Positions 11,853 through 18,449 of a stretch of 64,000 nucleotides of DNA are shown piece by piece (position 1 is the stretch's first letter; each line of letters opens with the position of its first letter). The stretch is from an uncultured Solimonas sp. (GTDB lineage Bacteria; Pseudomonadota; Gammaproteobacteria; Nevskiales; Nevskiaceae). The notes below the pieces were generated by a model. The model was not told where the DNA came from. It did not search any database and saw only the letters and a list, made by a program, of their open reading frames with translations. Made by a program: the position numbers and the translations under genes. The DNA lies in NCBI GenBank assembly GCA_946478985.1, contig CAMLDZ010000002.1, positions 1 through 64,000 on the forward strand. The letters are read 5' to 3'.

Positions 11853-12251
11853 TCAGGCCGGCGGCCACTCGGGGTGCTGCGGCAGCGCGTCGCAGATCTC
11901 GAACCACGGCGCCTTGGAGGCGGCGAAGATGTGCGCGCCGGGGCCGCGTGGCGGCGGCGTATCCAGCGTGCCCAGGCGCAGGCGCACGAGTTCCGGCAGC
12001 GCATCGCGGCGGCTGATCAGCGGCGAGCCGCAATCGCCGCAGAACACGCGGTGTACGCCGGCCACGCTGAAGGTCTTCATCGCCGTCTCGCCGCGAGTGA
12101 CGACGAAGTCGCGCGCCTGCACGACGGCGTTGGACGCGAAGGCGCTGCCATTGGCCTTGCGGCAGCGCGAGCAGTGGCAGAAGAAGGCGGCTCCGATCTC
12201 GCCGCGCACTTCGTAATGGACGGTGCCGCACAGACAGCTGCCTTGGTACAT
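11853..12251 (-). CDS. GFA-family zinc-binding protein
   Basis: This 132-residue protein matches the GFA (glutathione-dependent formaldehyde-activating-like) fold. The zinc-binding cysteine clusters are SCLCGTVHYEV near residue 5, FFCHCSRCRKANGSAF near residue 30, and FCGDCGSPL near residue 93. The family name is historical and a catalytic role is not implied. It ends 7 bp from the convergent JAMM-like gene and starts 14 bp after the stop of the SLOG/cyclase gene on the same strand, so it may be co-transcribed with that gene. Confidence 0.88.
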   Translation of the reverse strand: MYQGSCLCGTVHYEVRGEIGAAFFCHCSRCRKANGSAFASNAVVQARDFVVTRGETAMKTFSVAGVHRVFCGDCGSPLISRRDALPELVRLRLGTLDTPPPRGPGAHIFAASKAPWFEICDALPQHPEWPPA

Positions 12252-12265
12252 GCCGGTCTCCGGTG

Positions 12266-14722
12266 TCAGTCGCGCCGCTGCAGCGCGAACAGGCGATAAG
12301 TGCCGGCGCGCTTGGCCAGCTCGATCTCGCCTGCGTAGTCGATGATGAAATCGGTGGGCGCTTCCAGCGCCACACGCGCCGCCAGCGGCTCGGTGATGTA
12401 GATCATGCCCGGCGGCGCCACCGGTTCGATGCGCGCGGTGAACAGCAGCTGCGTGCCATAGCAGGTCGGCTTGTGCTCGATCGGGTCGTAGCCATGATAA
12501 GCGGGCGCGAAATGGGCGGCGATGCGCAGTTCCAGATCGGAGAGCAGATCGCGATGGCTCAGGCGGCGCTGCTCGATGAAGTACTGGATGTCGGCGGCGA
12601 TGTGCGCGGCGGTGGCGGCATCGACGGTGGCGAGGTGGATCGCATCGCCCCAGCTCTTGGCCACCCTCACCTTGTCGCCATAGCGCGCGATCAAGGCGCC
12701 GATCGGCGTCATGATCTCGCGGTAGTAGCGCGGCAGCATCGCTTCGTCGAGGCGACGGAAGCTGGCGAAATCCGCGAACAGCAGACCGGCCGTCAGCCGC
12801 GAGGTCCGGGCGGTGGCCACGGGCGCGGCCTCGGGCGGCGGGGCCTCTGTGCGCAGCCGCGCGCCGTGCCGGCGCAACTGCAGGGGCTGCCAGTGCAGGC
12901 CGAGCCGCGCCGCGTTCAGATGCGACAGCCCCAAGGTCGTCGTCTCCGCCTCCGCGCACGCCCAGGCCATCTCGCGCGGCAGGAAACCGCGCTGCTCGGC
13001 GACACTGTCGGCGGCCTCGAGCAGGCGCTGCAGCCGCGCGCCGAACGTGCGCGTCGCCTCGCGGCCCCAGTGACGCAGCAGCGCCGGCGCCGGCGCCGGC
13101 AGGCTCAGATACAGGTGCGCGCCGAGCTCTCGCAGCTTCTCCGCCAGCAGCAGATCGGCCGGCGCACGCAGGCACAGGTGCAGCAGGGCGCGCGCCGCGA
13201 TCTGCCGGCGCAGGCTCATCGGCAGCGCCGCTGCCAGCGCCGCTTCGTCGATCTCGGCGCTGCGCGTCAGGTGGATCGCCGCCGGCAAGCGCAGCGCTTC
13301 GATCAGCGCGGGGTCGATGCGCAGCGCGCGGCACAGGCACAGCAGCTGCTGGCGGGTACGGCTGCGCCGCGTGAGGTCGTCCGGCAGCAGCGTGTCGGCG
13401 CGGCGCAGCGCGGCGGCGCAATCTTCTTCACGCCCCACCAGCAGCGCCGCCTCGGCGATCGTCACCAGGCGGTAGTAGCGCTCCGGCGCCGCGCCGGCCG
13501 CATCGGCGTCGATCTGCCGCAGCAGCCGTCGCGCGAGGCGTCGCGCGGCGGGGGCATCGCCCGACAGCAGCAGCATCGACGCCGCGTTGATGCCGCTGTA
13601 GTAGCCCGCGTAACGCCGGTAGGCGGCCAGGTAGGCGTGCGCGGCGCGCGCGAAGTGGCGTGTGGCTTCGCGCGCTTCGCGCAGCCCCAGATCCTTCTCC
13701 AGCCGGCCGTGCAGCGCCAGCCAGTCCTCGTCGAGTTCGCCGTCGTCGAGATCGAGGCTGCGATAGGCGTCGAGGGCGCGGGCGACGTTGCCGGTATCGG
13801 CCAGCGCCTGGATGCGCAGGTAGTCGAGCCGTCGTGAATGCAGGCCTCGCTGCAAGGCGCGGTTGACCAGATCCAGGCACAGCAGGTCATTGCCGGCGCG
13901 ACGCGCCTTGCCGGCAGCGCTCAGCGCCGCCTGCACGGTCAGTGCGGCCTCGTCGCCGCCCTTGAGCTTGCCATCGCCGCCACGGTCGCCGGGGTCGATC
14001 CGGTAAGTCTGCAGCGGCCCGCCGCTGCGGCCGGTATGCAGCTGCAGTTCGGCCGGAATCAGCGCCGGCTGGTGTCGCCAGGCGATGATCTCGGCGGTGC
14101 CGCCGGGCTCGACGGCGGTGCCCGGCCGCAGGATCGCGACGACCACGTCGGCGTGCTGGGCGATGATCGCCGCCAGACGGCGGTACTGATGCTGGCGGAA
14201 CGCGCGCGAGGCCAGCGTCTGTGGCCGCACATCATCCGGATACAGCGGCACGATGGTCCGGCAGCAGGCCAGCAGGGCGTCGACCTCGGCGCGCATGCGC
14301 TGCCGCGCCGCGCTGCCGACGCGCTGCTCGCCATCGCGCGCGCGCAGCACCCAGTCATTGAGCAACTGCGGCACCGGCACCGGCAGCAGTGCCGTCATCT
14401 CGAAGTCGATGTCGCGTGCGCGCAGCCAGTCGGCGGCGGTCTGCAGGAACAGCAGATCGGCGCCCGGCGCCAGGCCGACGAACAGCGACAGGCGTGCCTT
14501 GCTCGCCGCCAGTTCCGGCAACACGCTGTCGATGAGCTGCGCGCGCACGCTATGGATCTCGGTGCGGCTCAGCAGCAGGTGGCCGCAGGCGCCGACGCGC
14601 AGGCGCGGCGCACTCGCGCCGCTGCGCGACGCGCGCGTCAGCCACTCGCGCAGCGATCGCGTCAACGGTGCGGCGCTGGTGCGGTCCTGCCGACCAGGAT
14701 GCTGGCGACTCCCTGTACGCAT
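12266..14722 (-). CDS. SLOG-TPR-class III cyclase-like multidomain protein
   Basis: The 818-residue protein has three parts. Residues about 35-230 look like a SLOG nucleotide-binding Rossmannoid: LRVGACGHL, FVGLAPGAD and PGGTAEIIAW match the GH...GxAxGAD...GGTAE signature. Residues about 265-510 are TPR-like helices resembling the TRAFs-binding (TPR-S) module, with YYSGINAASMLLLSGD and TIAEAALLVG. Residues about 640-818 resemble a class III nucleotidyl cyclase, with metal-site candidates Asp651 (LFADFASF) and Asp693 (KSWGDAI); the usual Asn of VNxAAR is Leu (QLLFTAR). GAGGGGGAG 9 bases before the ATG at 14722 sets the start; upstream in-frame starts run into the divergent TIR gene. Function is inferred from domains only. 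Confidence 0.8.
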   Translation of the reverse strand: MRTGSRQHPGRQDRTSAAPLTRSLREWLTRASRSGASAPRLRVGACGHLLLSRTEIHSVRAQLIDSVLPELAASKARLSLFVGLAPGADLLFLQTAADWLRARDIDFEMTALLPVPVPQLLNDWVLRARDGEQRVGSAARQRMRAEVDALLACCRTIVPLYPDDVRPQTLASRAFRQHQYRRLAAIIAQHADVVVAILRPGTAVEPGGTAEIIAWRHQPALIPAELQLHTGRSGGPLQTYRIDPGDRGGDGKLKGGDEAALTVQAALSAAGKARRAGNDLLCLDLVNRALQRGLHSRRLDYLRIQALADTGNVARALDAYRSLDLDDGELDEDWLALHGRLEKDLGLREAREATRHFARAAHAYLAAYRRYAGYYSGINAASMLLLSGDAPAARRLARRLLRQIDADAAGAAPERYYRLVTIAEAALLVGREEDCAAALRRADTLLPDDLTRRSRTRQQLLCLCRALRIDPALIEALRLPAAIHLTRSAEIDEAALAAALPMSLRRQIAARALLHLCLRAPADLLLAEKLRELGAHLYLSLPAPAPALLRHWGREATRTFGARLQRLLEAADSVAEQRGFLPREMAWACAEAETTTLGLSHLNAARLGLHWQPLQLRRHGARLRTEAPPPEAAPVATARTSRLTAGLLFADFASFRRLDEAMLPRYYREIMTPIGALIARYGDKVRVAKSWGDAIHLATVDAATAAHIAADIQYFIEQRRLSHRDLLSDLELRIAAHFAPAYHGYDPIEHKPTCYGTQLLFTARIEPVAPPGMIYITEPLAARVALEAPTDFIIDYAGEIELAKRAGTYRLFALQRRD

Positions 14723-14739
14723 GCGTGGCTGCTCCCCCT

Positions 14740-14757
14740 CGATGAACATTATCATCG
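14740..14757. promoter_or_regulatory. Palindrome in the divergent SLOG/TIR promoter region
   Basis: CGATGA-acatta-TCATCG is a perfect 6-bp inverted repeat with a 6-base spacer. It sits in the 61-bp gap between the divergently transcribed SLOG/cyclase gene and the TIR/WD40 gene. TATCAT (14750-14755) overlaps it and could be a plus-strand -10 box. The gap must hold both start regions, so a shared operator is plausible, but no regulator gene is adjacent. Confidence 0.35.
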
Positions 14758-14783
14758 CGCCAAGCCACACATCGGGGAGAGCG

Positions 14784-17700
14784 GTGTCAGACACGGGGAC
14801 GACGCCGCGCTACTGGGCGTTCATCAGCTACAGCCACTATGACCGTGACTGGGCGCGCTGGCTGCATCGCCGGCTCGAAACCTATCGCGTGCCGCGGCGG
14901 CTGGCCGGGCGTCCGCACTGGGCCGGGGCGGTGCCGCGACGTCTGCTGCCGGTGTTCCGTGATCGCGACGAACTGCCCAGCTCGGCCGACCTCGGTGGTG
15001 TGGTACATCGGGCGCTGCGCGATTCGCGCTATCTGATCGTCATCTGTTCACGGCACGCCGCGCGCTCACGCTGGGTCAACGAAGAGGTCGAGGCGTTCAA
15101 GCGGCTCGGCCGCGAAGATCGTGTGCTGTGCCTGAAGATCGAGGATTCCGGGCTCGACGGCGGCGTCTTCGCGCCCGCCCTGCTGCAGCGCTACGGCCCG
15201 CAGGGTCAGCGTCTGGAGGTGCAGGCCGAGCCGCTGGCTGCCGATGTCTCCGCGCAGGCCGATGGCCGCGAGGGCGCAGCCCTCAAACTGATCGCCGGCA
15301 TGCTGGGCGTCGGTTACGACGATCTGCGTCGTCGCGAACGGCGGCGGCGCATCCAGCAGCATCTGCTGGCCGCCGGCGCGGCGGCGGCGCTGGTCCTGCT
15401 CGGCGTGCTCGGCTGGCACTGGCAGCAGGATGAAAAGCGCCGCGCGCTGGACACGCAGGCCTTGCAGGCGCGCATCGAGACGCTCTACAGCCGCGGCCGC
15501 GACGAATTGCTCGCGCATCGCGAAGCCCGTGCTGCGGTCCTGCTCGCGGAAGCCTACCGGCTGGGCGTGCAGACGCCGGCCTTGCGCTACATGCTGGGCC
15601 GCGCGATGCGCGTCGTCGATGCCCAGCAGCAGCGCATCCAGACGCCGATGCCGGTGCTGCTGGCGGACGGCGACGCGCAGGCGCGTCGGCTGATGGCGAT
15701 CGGTGACGATTCGCGGCTGCGGGTCTACGCACGCGCCGGCGGCGGTCCGCAGCTGGACATCGATCTCGGCGACTTCACGGCCGTCTACGGCGGCTTCAGC
15801 GACAAGGGTGGTCTGATCTGGATCGACAGCGAGCATCGCGAAGCGCCGCAGCGCCGGCTGCGACTCTACGCCACCGACGACGGCCGCCTGCTGCAGCAGT
15901 TCGGCGAGCGGCACATCGGCGATGGCGCCTCGCTGCCGCCGGTCGATGGCGACGATCGCCGGCTGGTCTACATCGACGAGACGCATGCGCTGAATCTGCA
16001 GACGCTCGGTGGCGGCGCGCAGCGCCTGCCGGGTGATTTCAGCGCGGCGCGCTTCTGCCGCGGCGATCGCGCGATCATCGTCGGCCGCAGCGACGGCACC
16101 GTCGAGCTGCGCGATCCGCAGGGCCTGACACTGCGCCGACAGTTCGATGGCCTGCGCGGCCGACCGGTGGCGCTGGACTCGACCGCCGACTGCGGGTCCA
16201 TCGCCGCCGGCAGCGCCGACGGCGCGGTGCGCGTCTGGGATGGCGGCAGCGGTGCGGTGCTGATGGGCGGCGGTCACGGCCGGCCGATCACCGACTTGCA
16301 GCTCAGCATCGATGGCACGCGGCTGATGACACTGACGCGCGCCGACATGGGCGTGTGGAACGGCCGCAGCGGCGTGCTCGCCTATGCCAGCCGCTTCTTC
16401 GACCCGCTGCGCAATCTGGCGGCGATGCAAGCCGGAGGCCGGGCGTTCGCGCGGCTCAGCGAGGGGCGCCTGGCGATCCTCGATCCGTACTCCGGTGTCG
16501 AACGTTACTCGCTGGACGCGCATCGCGGCGGGCCCGGCACGGCAGTGTTCGCACGCGTCGGTGCCGAACGCGACGATACGGCCGCGCAGCAGCTGATCAG
16601 TGGCGGCAGCGATGGCGCGATCGTGGTGTGGAACCTGCCGCCGATGCCGCTGCTGGATATCGCCAACCATGCCGGCGCCGATATCGCGCCGACGCCGGTG
16701 GCGACCGCTGCGAGCGGCGCGCGGATGTTCATCGCCGATGCCGGCGGCGGCTCGCTGTGGCAGTTCGCCGACCGGCAGCCGCGGCTGCGTCTCGACGGCG
16801 AGCCGACGCAGGCCGCCGCCTTCGGCACCGACGCACGGCATCTGGCGCTTGCCAGCGCCCGCAGCTTGCGCCTGGTCGATGGCGACAGCGGTGCGACACG
16901 CTGGTCGCAGGCGCTATCGGCGCCTCCGCTGCTGCTTGGCTTCGGCGGCGAAGACCGTTATCTGGCGGCGGCGCTCGGTGGCAATCTCGTCGAGGTCTAT
17001 GCCGTGCAGGACGGCACGCGACTGCTGCGTGTCGATCGCGACGAGGCGCGCGCGCAGGCGCTGTCACCGCGCGACGACAGCTTCGCGTATGGCCGCGATG
17101 GGGCCGTCAGCCTGTATGAGCTGAAGACACGGCAGCTGCGCTGGACGCGGCGACTGACCACGGGCGAGGACTACGCCGACGGCGTCGGCGTACTGGCCTT
17201 CAGCCTTGATGGCCGCCGCATGCTCGCCACCACACGACGCGCACACGCCTTCATCCTCGACGTGCACAGCGGCGCGGTACTGCAGCGGATCAGCGACCCG
17301 GCATCCGAATACTTCGCATCCGGCGAGTTCTCGCCGGATGGTGCGCAGGTGGCACTCGGCGACAGCGCCAAGGCAGTGCTGCTGTGGCGGCTGGCCGACC
17401 ATCGTCTGCGCCGGCTCGGCGGCCACAGCGGCAGCGTCCGCGTCACGCGCTTCAGCGACGACGGTGCCTTGCTGCTGAGCAGCGGCGACGATGGCCAGTT
17501 GAAGATCTGGGATGCGCAGCGCGCCGAGCCGATCGACTCCCTGCTCGCGCACGACGGTCCGGTGATGTGGAACAACGCCGGCTTCGGCGCGCAGTACCGT
17601 TATCTGCTCAGCGGCGGCGCTGATGGCATGGCAAGGGTCTGGGACACGGCGCCGGAGTTGCGCGATGCCGACGCGATCACGCGGCGGCTGCGCTGCCGCG

Positions 17701-17792
17701 TCAGCTGGCGGATCGAAGGCGTGGCGCTGGTATCGCGCGCCGTCGACACGCAGGACTGCGACGAGCAGGCGCCGCGCGTTTCCTCGCCATGA
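14784..17792 (+). CDS. TIR-transmembrane-WD40 protein
   Basis: The 1002-residue protein starts at GTG 14784, with GGGGAG 4 bases upstream. Residues about 8-160 are a TIR domain: YWAFISYSHYDRDWARW, RLLPVFRDRDELPSSADL, and SRWVNEEVEAF. Glu101 in WVNEE aligns with the catalytic Glu of TIR NADases. Residues about 189-210 (LLAAGAAAALVLLGVLGWHW) form one membrane helix. The rest is a WD40-like propeller with repeats such as GHSGSVRVTRFSDDG followed by DGQLKIWD. TIR domains either degrade NAD or signal by adaptor contacts; which applies here is unknown. The membrane helix would tether the TIR side in the cytoplasm and place the propeller across or along the membrane. It is divergent from the SLOG/cyclase gene. 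Confidence 0.88.
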   Translation: MSDTGTTPRYWAFISYSHYDRDWARWLHRRLETYRVPRRLAGRPHWAGAVPRRLLPVFRDRDELPSSADLGGVVHRALRDSRYLIVICSRHAARSRWVNEEVEAFKRLGREDRVLCLKIEDSGLDGGVFAPALLQRYGPQGQRLEVQAEPLAADVSAQADGREGAALKLIAGMLGVGYDDLRRRERRRRIQQHLLAAGAAAALVLLGVLGWHWQQDEKRRALDTQALQARIETLYSRGRDELLAHREARAAVLLAEAYRLGVQTPALRYMLGRAMRVVDAQQQRIQTPMPVLLADGDAQARRLMAIGDDSRLRVYARAGGGPQLDIDLGDFTAVYGGFSDKGGLIWIDSEHREAPQRRLRLYATDDGRLLQQFGERHIGDGASLPPVDGDDRRLVYIDETHALNLQTLGGGAQRLPGDFSAARFCRGDRAIIVGRSDGTVELRDPQGLTLRRQFDGLRGRPVALDSTADCGSIAAGSADGAVRVWDGGSGAVLMGGGHGRPITDLQLSIDGTRLMTLTRADMGVWNGRSGVLAYASRFFDPLRNLAAMQAGGRAFARLSEGRLAILDPYSGVERYSLDAHRGGPGTAVFARVGAERDDTAAQQLISGGSDGAIVVWNLPPMPLLDIANHAGADIAPTPVATAASGARMFIADAGGGSLWQFADRQPRLRLDGEPTQAAAFGTDARHLALASARSLRLVDGDSGATRWSQALSAPPLLLGFGGEDRYLAAALGGNLVEVYAVQDGTRLLRVDRDEARAQALSPRDDSFAYGRDGAVSLYELKTRQLRWTRRLTTGEDYADGVGVLAFSLDGRRMLATTRRAHAFILDVHSGAVLQRISDPASEYFASGEFSPDGAQVALGDSAKAVLLWRLADHRLRRLGGHSGSVRVTRFSDDGALLLSSGDDGQLKIWDAQRAEPIDSLLAHDGPVMWNNAGFGAQYRYLLSGGADGMARVWDTAPELRDADAITRRLRCRVSWRIEGVALVSRAVDTQDCDEQAPRVSSP

Positions 17793-17820
17793 AAAAAGCC
17801 GCCGCCCGGAGGGCGGCGGC
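17792..17820 (-). terminator. Rho-independent terminator of the histone H1-like gene
   Basis: GCCGCCGCCC (17798-17807) pairs with GGGCGGCGGC (17811-17820) around a 3-base loop. The minus strand continues with six T residues (A-run 17792-17797). It ends transcription from the H1-like gene at 17870-18127 and abuts the stop codon of the convergent TIR/WD40 gene. Confidence 0.85.
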
Positions 17821-17838
17821 TCGTCGGCCTTGCACTAA

Positions 17839-17857
17839 AGGACTGCCGGGCAGTCCT
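17839..17857. repeat. Perfect 9-bp palindrome
   Basis: AGGACTGCC-G-GGCAGTCCT is a perfect inverted repeat with a single central base. It lies between the terminator and the stop codon of the H1-like gene. It cannot close as a full hairpin, so it may be a protein-binding site or a hairpin with a few unpaired central bases. Confidence 0.4.
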
Positions 17858-17869
17858 GTGTCAGACGCT

Positions 17870-18127
17870 TCAGGCGGTCTTGGCGGGCGCCTTCTTGGCA
17901 GGCTTCTTCGCCACTTTCTTCACGGCCTTCTTCACCGCCTTCTTGGCGGCGACCTTCTTCGCCGGTGCCTTCTTGGCAACCTTCTTCACGGCCTTCTTCA
18001 CCGCCGCGGCCTTCTTGGCAACCTTCTTCACCACCTTCTTGGCGGCCTTGGCAACCTTCTTCACAGCCTTCTTCGGAGCGGCCTTGGCAGCCAGCGTCGG
18101 CGAGCCGGACTTCTTCACTTTACCCAT
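17870..18127 (-). CDS. Histone H1-like Lys/Ala-rich protein
   Basis: The 85-residue product is almost entirely Lys, Ala, Val and Pro in short repeats such as KKAVKKVAKK and KKAPAK, like the C-terminal tails of eukaryotic H1 and the bacterial AlgP/HctA-like proteins. Such proteins bind DNA non-specifically and affect nucleoid compaction or transcription. The ATG at 18127 follows GGGAGAG about 5 bases upstream, and a GTG two codons earlier is less likely. The internal codon repeats make the gene prone to expansion and contraction. It has its own terminator and a palindrome in its upstream region. Confidence 0.85.
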   Translation of the reverse strand: MGKVKKSGSPTLAAKAAPKKAVKKVAKAAKKVVKKVAKKAAAVKKAVKKVAKKAPAKKVAAKKAVKKAVKKVAKKPAKKAPAKTA

Positions 18128-18449
18128 TGACACTCTCCCTATAGAGCGATCTTGGTGGCATCGCGGCCCTCCCCCCGCAAGCGGAATAACGGACCCTCGA
18201 TGGTGGCGATGGCTTGCAAAAAAATTTGCACGGCGTCATTCGCGCAGCGCGACGGTAGCGTATTCACCAAGTGATCTTCAAATCTTGGCCGGCATGACAT
18301 CTCGTCGGCTGATGCTGAACGGCTGAGCCTTGCGCGATGCGGCTGCGCGCCGTGAAGCCTGTGCGAAGCGGCGCAGCGACGCACAACAGCATCACACGCT
18401 CTACAATCCGCGCCTCCGCAATCCCTCGTTCACCGCCGATACGACCGCC
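18128..18449. other. 322-bp intergenic region between the H1-like gene and proS
   Basis: No convincing gene is present. A minus-strand open frame (18139-18384) lacks recognisable similarity and a good start site. The region should carry both divergent promoters. TACAAT at 18402-18407 is a plausible proS -10 box, 42 bases before its ATG. An A/T-rich palindrome at 18215-18230 lies on the H1-like side. Confidence 0.6.
18215..18230. promoter_or_regulatory. A/T-rich palindrome upstream of the H1-like gene
   Basis: TGCAAA-aaaa-TTTGCA is a perfect 6-bp inverted repeat, the most A/T-rich patch in this intergenic region, 88 bases upstream of the H1-like start codon. It could be an operator or nucleoid-protein site. 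There is no direct evidence beyond symmetry and position. Confidence 0.25.

What the first reader, a model, noticed from the sequence alone, without database searches (positions are those of the whole stretch)
12266..17792. Divergent SLOG-TPR-cyclase / TIR-membrane-WD40 pair: candidate nucleotide-signalling conflict system
Seen: a 818-residue protein with a SLOG-like domain (GACGH, GLAPGAD, PGGTAE), TPR-S-like helices and a class III cyclase-like C-terminus, divergent over 61 bp from a 1002-residue TIR protein with a membrane helix and WD40 repeats. Known: SLOG domains bind nucleotide-derived ligands, TIR domains can cleave NAD with a Glu as catalyst (here Glu101), and TPR-S and cyclase domains recur in predicted immune and death-signalling systems. 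Inference: one partner makes or senses a nucleotide signal and the other responds by NAD depletion or membrane signalling. Absence of flanking phage genes leaves a housekeeping signalling role open.
Basis: partly seen in the sequence, partly recalled or inferred. Interest (0 to 1): 0.85.

Follow-up and report, generated by a model that had tools for sequence, protein, structure and literature searches.

The report
Membrane TIR receptor with cyclase partner
Two neighbouring bacterial genes encode a membrane protein of the TIR (Toll-like) type and a soluble multi-sensor nucleotide cyclase; relatives of the two recur together in several bacterial groups, which suggests a two-part signalling relay that could be tested in the laboratory.

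Summary
ORF A (818 aa, minus strand) and ORF B (1002 aa, plus strand) start 61 bp apart. A is a YpsA-type SLOG domain, TPR-S repeats (the ASK1-type sensor), a second degenerate SLOG-like domain and a class III cyclase with both metal aspartates. B is an N-terminal TIR with catalytic-type Glu101, one membrane helix and WD40 repeats. The pairing is not chance. In the order of Solimonas, 29 of 31 genomes with A carry a B-type TIR, against 2 of 54 without A. In 40 hand-picked Sphingomonadales loci with A-like proteins, 33 have a TIR gene within 5 kb, against 0 of 40 loci of other class III cyclases. The link outlives the cyclase: 20 of 23 loci lacking its second metal motif keep the TIR gene. The TIR thus goes with the SLOG/TPR-S sensor. 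Best reading: B is a TIR receptor whose NAD+-derived product, or contact, gates A's sensor and so the cyclase. Direction, chemistry and purpose are inferred. In Solimonas the pair sits among housekeeping genes. Related loci carry pNTSase1, a predicted nucleotide synthetase, so this looks like a new variant of a predicted kind.

The parts
12266..14722 (-). ORF A: SLOG - TPR-S - SLOG-like - class III cyclase protein, 818 aa
13988..14605 (-). A residues 40-245: N-terminal YpsA-type SLOG domain (GxxGH, GxAPGxD, PGGxAE)
13295..13954 (-). A residues 257-476: TPR-S helical repeats (Pfam hit at residues 283-384)
   Evidence: PF20308 1.1e-12 over its cut-off; ASK1 sequence match E 0.005
12845..13285 (-). 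A residues 480-626: second, degenerate SLOG-like alpha/beta domain
   Evidence: model; profile match to the N-terminal SLOG over 66 columns, probability 86.6, E 4.4e-6; GH and GxxxGxD motifs present in class 2 relatives
12269..12805 (-). A residues 640-818: class III nucleotide cyclase domain; metal Asp 651 and 693, Arg 764
14723..14783 (.). 61-bp divergent intergenic region
   Evidence: no sigma-70 consensus found
14784..17792 (+). ORF B: TIR - membrane helix - WD40 protein, 1002 aa
14820..15146 (+). B residues 13-121: TIR domain; Glu101 (15084-15086) at the catalytic position
   Evidence: PF13676 1.4e-12; E in 23 of 23 aligned relatives and in 30 of 30 TIRs within 1 kb of an A homologue
15360..15422 (+). 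B residues 193-213: single hydrophobic (membrane) helix, strongly positive on its N-terminal side
   Evidence: hydropathy only
15501..17738 (+). B residues about 240-985: WD40 beta-propeller region
   Evidence: the same region fused to Ser/Thr kinases in P0079, P0081, P0083

Best explanation
A and B are a two-part signalling module. B is a membrane receptor: a WD40 sensor (probably outside the cytoplasm), one membrane helix and a cytoplasmic TIR. When triggered, the TIR either makes an NAD+-derived nucleotide with Glu101 or contacts A. A's SLOG and TPR-S domains sense that signal and control the cyclase dimer at its C-terminus, which then makes a cyclic nucleotide. Shown: the anatomy, the statistical link between the TIR and the SLOG/TPR-S protein, and conservation of the TIR Glu and, in class 1, of the cyclase metal aspartates. 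Inferred: membrane topology, TIR enzyme activity, direction of signalling, ligand, and cyclase product.
For: Divergent TIR gene within 1 kb of A in 9 of 28 fetched class 1 loci plus the window. In the 85 genomes searched in the order: A+B+ 29, A only 2, B only 2, neither 52. In distant SLOG/TPR-S(-cyclase) loci, TIR within 5 kb in 33 of 40, against 0 of 40 other class III cyclases from the same order with like flanks. TIR in 20 of 23 of those loci without the cyclase's WGD motif and in 13 of 17 with it, so it tracks the sensor part. A membrane helix after the TIR passes a hydropathy threshold in 24 of 30 adjacent partners, followed by WD40, TPR, PQQ, LprI or short tails. The WD40 part of B also occurs fused to Ser/Thr kinases at 41-43% identity, as expected of a sensor with swapped output domains. 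The N-terminal SLOG is closest to YpsA; PMC9503650 (passages) says the YpsA-like clade includes members that sense cADPR. Metal Asp and Arg in 45 of 45 cyclase domains aligned, out of 78 found.
Against: No activity, binding or topology was measured. In 19 of 28 class 1 loci no TIR lies within 1 kb; of the 16 such genomes searched by handle, 14 have a B-type TIR elsewhere. Two genomes with A have no B-type TIR found (G007, G016), and in L009 (G007) A sits beside proS without B. In class 2, 29 of 49 loci have no TIR within 1 kb. The cyclase lacks the usual transition-state Asn, and the base-selecting position varies, so activity is unproven; the cyclase is degenerate or absent in many sphingomonad relatives. 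In one actinobacterial sample only 1 of 198 genomes matched, so the family is rare there. The co-occurrence statistic is not corrected for phylogeny. The WD40 region was not shown to lie outside the cytoplasm.
Confidence: 0.45

Rival explanations
1. Pycsar-like order: A senses a trigger through SLOG/TPR-S, its cyclase makes a cyclic mononucleotide, and the product switches on the TIR of B, which depletes NAD+.
For: Class III cyclase next to a TIR gene, with the metal Asp and the catalytic-type Glu kept. PycTIR is a Pycsar output that depletes NAD+ (PMC11224242, passages, section 6 and part 1 of 2 of section 7 seen).
Against: No cyclic-nucleotide-binding domain among the families shown for B (best 25 of 35) or in ten TIR partners with complete lists at E up to 0.01 (L034, L043, L049, L058, L077; L029, L022; L170, L196, L202). 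TIR kept in 20 of 23 loci without the cyclase's WGD motif. No PADLOC match for A; BcPycC 7r65 only E 0.31.
Confidence: 0.15
2. Non-enzymatic complex: the TIR and the related Rossmann-like SLOG domains (or TPR-S) bind each other, the TIR acting as scaffold; A's cyclase is gated by assembly, as ASK1's kinase is by its N-terminal domains.
For: TPR-S matches ASK1 (E 0.005), in which N-terminal domain and TPR contact the kinase dimer (PMC10972558, passages). The TIR link persists without an intact cyclase.
Against: The catalytic-type Glu is kept in 30 of 30 adjacent TIRs of differing sequence and architecture, more than a pure scaffold needs.
Confidence: 0.2
3. An antiphage system of the predicted conflict-system type: B and A detect infection and stop growth through NAD+ loss or a toxic cyclic nucleotide.
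For: Some Sphingomonadales loci carry pNTSase1 (PF20301, predicted novel nucleotide synthetase) between TIR and TPR-S genes. TPR-S hits A and a ThsB-like TIR model hits B.
Against: Solimonas locus syntenic with proS on one side and moeB-prmC on the other. Among ten neighbours scanned in the window, PADLOC hits only the ThiF/MoeB protein. No PADLOC match for A or for four A relatives.
Confidence: 0.3
4. Chance neighbours with unrelated roles.
For: A occurs without a TIR within 1 kb in 19 of 28 class 1 and 29 of 49 class 2 loci.
Against: 33 of 40 against 0 of 40; genome co-occurrence 29 of 31 against 2 of 54.
Confidence: 0.04

Closest known systems
TPR-S / pNTSase1 / TIR predicted conflict systems (Burroughs and Aravind 2020; recalled, paper not held; Pfam names PF20308 and PF20301)
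   Same: TPR-S protein with a TIR gene nearby; distant relatives of A lie beside pNTSase1 and TIR genes in some Sphingomonadales.
   Different: The window pair is divergent with no third gene between; A has an extra N-terminal YpsA-type SLOG; B carries WD40; PF20301 found in 0 of 31 genomes of the Solimonas order that carry A (the tool warns that this is not proof of absence).
Thoeris (TIR ThsB + SLOG-bearing ThsA)
Pycsar (PycC + PycTIR/PycTM)
   Same: Class III cyclase with a TIR partner.
   Different: No cyclic-nucleotide-binding domain listed in the TIR partners scanned; no PADLOC match for A; added SLOG and TPR-S domains.
ASK1 (MAP3K5) N-terminal sensor architecture
   Same: TPR-S repeats behind a globular N-terminal domain and ahead of a dimeric catalytic domain.
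   Different: Cyclase instead of kinase; SLOG instead of the thioredoxin-binding domain.

Membership tests
SLOG superfamily (YpsA-like) | Rossmann-like SLOG fold | tested here: met
SLOG superfamily (YpsA-like) | glycine-rich signature motifs (recalled as typical of SLOG) | tested here: met
   G7, G10, H11, G46, A48, P49, G50, D52, G170 invariant in 25 of 25
TPR-S | Pfam PF20308 above cut-off | tested here: met
   48.8 bits against 27.6
Class III nucleotide cyclase | fold | tested here: met
Class III nucleotide cyclase | two metal-binding Asp | tested here: met
   D651 and D693 in 22 of 22 and 45 of 45
Class III nucleotide cyclase | transition-state Arg | tested here: met
   Arg in 21 of 22 and 45 of 45
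Class III nucleotide cyclase | transition-state Asn | tested here: not met
   Leu in the window; Asn in 1 of 45. Ma1120, solved as an adenylyl cyclase, has Ala there in the printed alignment
Class III nucleotide cyclase | conserved purine-selecting residues | tested here: inconclusive
   window Lys689 and Thr757, but relatives show K/Q/S/A/H/R/N/D at the first position
TIR NADase | TIR domain with catalytic-type Glu | tested here: met
TIR NADase | NAD+ cleavage | not testable with these tools
   needs an assay
Thoeris | ThsA-type effector (e.g. SIR2-SLOG) recognised in A | tested here: not met
   no SIR2 family in A by Pfam; no PADLOC match for A at E up to 1
Pycsar | PycC-type cyclase | tested here: not met
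   no PADLOC match for A; BcPycC E 0.31
Pycsar | cyclic-nucleotide-binding domain in the effector | tested here: inconclusive
   none among the 25 of 35 families shown for B; none in ten TIR partners with complete lists
TPR-S/pNTSase1 predicted system | pNTSase1 gene | tested here: inconclusive
   0 of 31 genomes of the Solimonas order with A (tool warns it is not proof of absence); 8 of 26 Sphingomonadales genomes, 7 over the cut-off

The most novel reading that the evidence does not exclude
A bacterial receptor relay with two successive nucleotide messengers: a transmembrane TIR receptor makes an NAD+-derived signal that a YpsA-type SLOG and TPR-S sensor reads, and this switches a class III cyclase of unusual base specificity. 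It would be a prokaryotic counterpart of Toll-type TIR reception feeding an ASK1-like sensor. Many sphingomonads would keep the TIR-to-sensor step after losing the cyclase activity.
Probability: 0.33. Interest if true: 0.82.

Novelty: new variant of a known kind. Interest (0 to 1): 0.6.

Why it matters
TIR and SLOG proteins are known to signal to each other in antiphage defence, and TPR-S is the repeat that is also found in animal ASK kinases. Here they are joined in one conserved module with a membrane receptor and a cyclase, in a stable chromosomal position. If the relay works as proposed, it links NAD+-derived signalling to classical cyclic nucleotides. It also gives a tractable system to find what TPR-S and YpsA-type SLOG domains bind, which I believe is still open.

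Tried and rejected
Searching the window's own genome and its relatives failed because none is held. SLOG was first sought by sequence: Pfam gave nothing for A and the PDB profile search gave nothing useful; the single-domain model settled it. A generic clustering of neighbouring ORFs was swamped by antisense ORFs in these GC-rich genomes and was replaced by domain profiles. A homemade gene caller was used only to pick coordinates. No sigma-70 promoter or terminator consensus was found in 14650-14850. The fold matches shown for the whole model cover only the cyclase; the TPR and second SLOG-like parts were not searched alone. A first control with 1.5-kb flanks was too small (0 of 8 against 12 of 30) and was redone with 5-kb flanks. 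Considered and dropped: B as an ordinary WD40 scaffold (the TIR Glu is invariant) and a mobile or phage origin (synteny). Papers: searches for the domain combination listed no paper that by title or abstract describes this pair (listings only, plus passages of PMC7159879); the most relevant paper by recall is not held. Selections before counts: 4 genomes with weak cyclase-only hits were not counted as A+ (G036, G037, G048, G066). 75 of 85 genomes match the B alignment at E up to 1e-3, mostly by WD40 alone; only matches that include the TIR (start at or before profile position 10, E below 1e-40) were counted. L024, cut at a contig end, is counted in class 2. The A alignment holds 22 of the 52 homologues, the B alignment 23 of the 120 listed. 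The 40 Sphingomonadales loci were picked by hand from the 65 matches; for 15 of them I had already seen 1.5-kb flanks, in which 3 showed a TIR (L131, L155, L156). L204 has a shorter flank on one side. The 40 controls were picked by hand from the list.

Full report
WHAT IS THERE. The two ORFs are as described: A at 14722-12266 on the minus strand (818 aa), B at 14784-17792 on the plus strand (1002 aa), 61 bp apart. Public predictions give the same protein lengths. By equal contig length, 16 of the 52 homologues of A appear to lie on the same contig as a homologue of B (best 120 of 1880 listed).

ANATOMY OF B. B has TIR_2 (1.4e-12) and ThsB_TIR (1e-7) at its N-terminus, Glu101 at the catalytic position (23 of 23 in the alignment; 30 of 30 TIRs within 1 kb of an A homologue), a hydrophobic helix at 193-213 with a basic N-terminal flank, and WD40 repeats. 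Of the 30 adjacent TIR proteins, 24 pass the hydropathy threshold for such a helix; the others are five TIR-WD40 proteins (L001-L004, L023) and one cut off by a contig end (L071). The WD40 part recurs fused to Ser/Thr kinases at 41-43% identity (P0079, P0081, P0083). This suggests a sensor with exchangeable output domains. That the WD40 lies outside the cytoplasm is inferred, not shown.

PAIRING. In 77 loci from named genomes plus the window, a TIR gene lies within 1 kb of the A homologue in 10 of 29 class 1 loci (window included) and 20 of 49 class 2 loci. Around the 77 fetched loci the TIR density is 29 in 149 kb near A against 6 in 1066 kb further out. The TIR profile was seeded from genes near A, which favours the near count. 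The arrangement and TIR sequence differ between groups (divergent or co-directional; WD40, TPR, PQQ, LprI or short tails), so the association is not one inherited arrangement. At genome level, among the 85 genomes searched in the order of Solimonas variicoloris (Nevskiales in NCBI), 31 carry A, 31 carry a B-type TIR and 29 carry both (Fisher p 4.5e-18, not corrected for descent). In several of these the two genes are on different contigs.

CONTROL AND DISCRIMINATION. In Sphingomonadales (order of L043's genome), 64 of 296 genomes match the class 2 alignment. I fetched 40 of the 65 places with 5-kb flanks. TIR lies within the flanks in 33 of 40: 13 of 14 with TPR-S, SLOG and a recognised cyclase, 3 of 6 SLOG-cyclase without TPR-S, and 17 of 20 found mainly by TPR-S and SLOG. 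In 40 loci of other class III cyclases from the same order with like flanks, TIR was found in 0 of 40. In the group of 20, the cyclase profile hits only one tail (L175, E 2e-5), and an iterated profile hits 13, so most are diverged remnants. None of the 20 has the WGD motif of the second metal Asp or the AR(K)xE motif; in L206-L208 WGD is also gone. Taken together, TIR is present in 20 of 23 loci without WGD and 13 of 17 with it (counted). The TIR therefore tracks the SLOG/TPR-S part, which argues against the cyclase product being the switch for the TIR.

RELATION TO PREDICTED SYSTEMS. In many of these loci a gene of about 150-300 aa lies between TIR and A. Two of the seven such proteins scanned hit pNTSase1, 'Predicted novel nucleotide synthetase' (L170, L196). 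A genome search found that family in 8 of 26 of these genomes (7 over the cut-off), each beside the A homologue by coordinates, and in 0 of 31 genomes of the Solimonas order with A (the tool warns that nothing rang in its control set). TPR-S and pNTSase1 are, as I recall, families from Burroughs and Aravind 2020, which is not held. PMC9503650 (passages) states that the YpsA-like SLOG clade includes cADPR sensors. PMC8195603 (passages) states that ASK signalosome components originate in bacterial conflict systems. PADLOC has no match for A or for four A relatives. In a sample of the phylum of L031's genome (an actinobacterial MAG by its title), only that genome itself matched, 1 of 198.

LOCUS. 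Upstream in the window lie hemA, prfA, prmC and a ThiF/MoeB gene; a GFA-family gene follows A closely; proS and a transglycosylase gene follow B. Six Solimonas loci (L001-L004, L015, L018) have the divergent pair; proS is on the B side in five and moeB on the A side in five. In L009 A sits by proS without B. This is a stable chromosomal position in Solimonas, with no sign of a defence island. PADLOC hits among ten neighbours were confined to the ThiF/MoeB protein, whose E1-like domain is shared with defence proteins.

CONCLUSION. The pair is real, conserved and very probably functionally linked. The best mechanism is a membrane TIR receptor feeding a SLOG/TPR-S sensor that controls a cyclase. 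The direction and chemistry need experiments, and the purpose (stress signalling or defence) is open.

Noticed in passing
window 11853-12251 (-): A GFA-family gene (PF04828, E 6.3e-29) starts 14 bp after A's stop on the same strand; no tblastn match in the 28 class 1 loci searched.
   Followed up: partly
P0079, P0081, P0083; G010:C75 and G027:C4: Ser/Thr kinase proteins share the WD40 region of B: a swap of kinase for TIR on the same sensor; similar WD40-only matches in long ORFs in two genomes.
   Followed up: partly
L170-L189, L206-L208: Graded erosion of the cyclase domain in sphingomonad relatives while the TIR neighbour mostly stays.
   Followed up: yes
L005, L006, L020, L021, L027, L028: The N-terminal SLOG is in a separate frame just upstream of the TPR-S-cyclase frame, so class 1 proteins may have arisen by fusion or been split.
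   Followed up: no
L067 2801-4759; L055 7468-9618: Other genes immediately upstream of class 2 A homologues: a TrkA_N plus RyR protein, and a YfbK-like VWA protein.
   Followed up: no
L046 5431-9675: A 1414-aa A homologue with some 850 extra N-terminal residues without Pfam hit in that part.
   Followed up: no
window 17789-18326: Low-complexity open frames between B and proS; by eye they could be the antisense of a Lys/Ala-rich histone-like gene.
   Followed up: no
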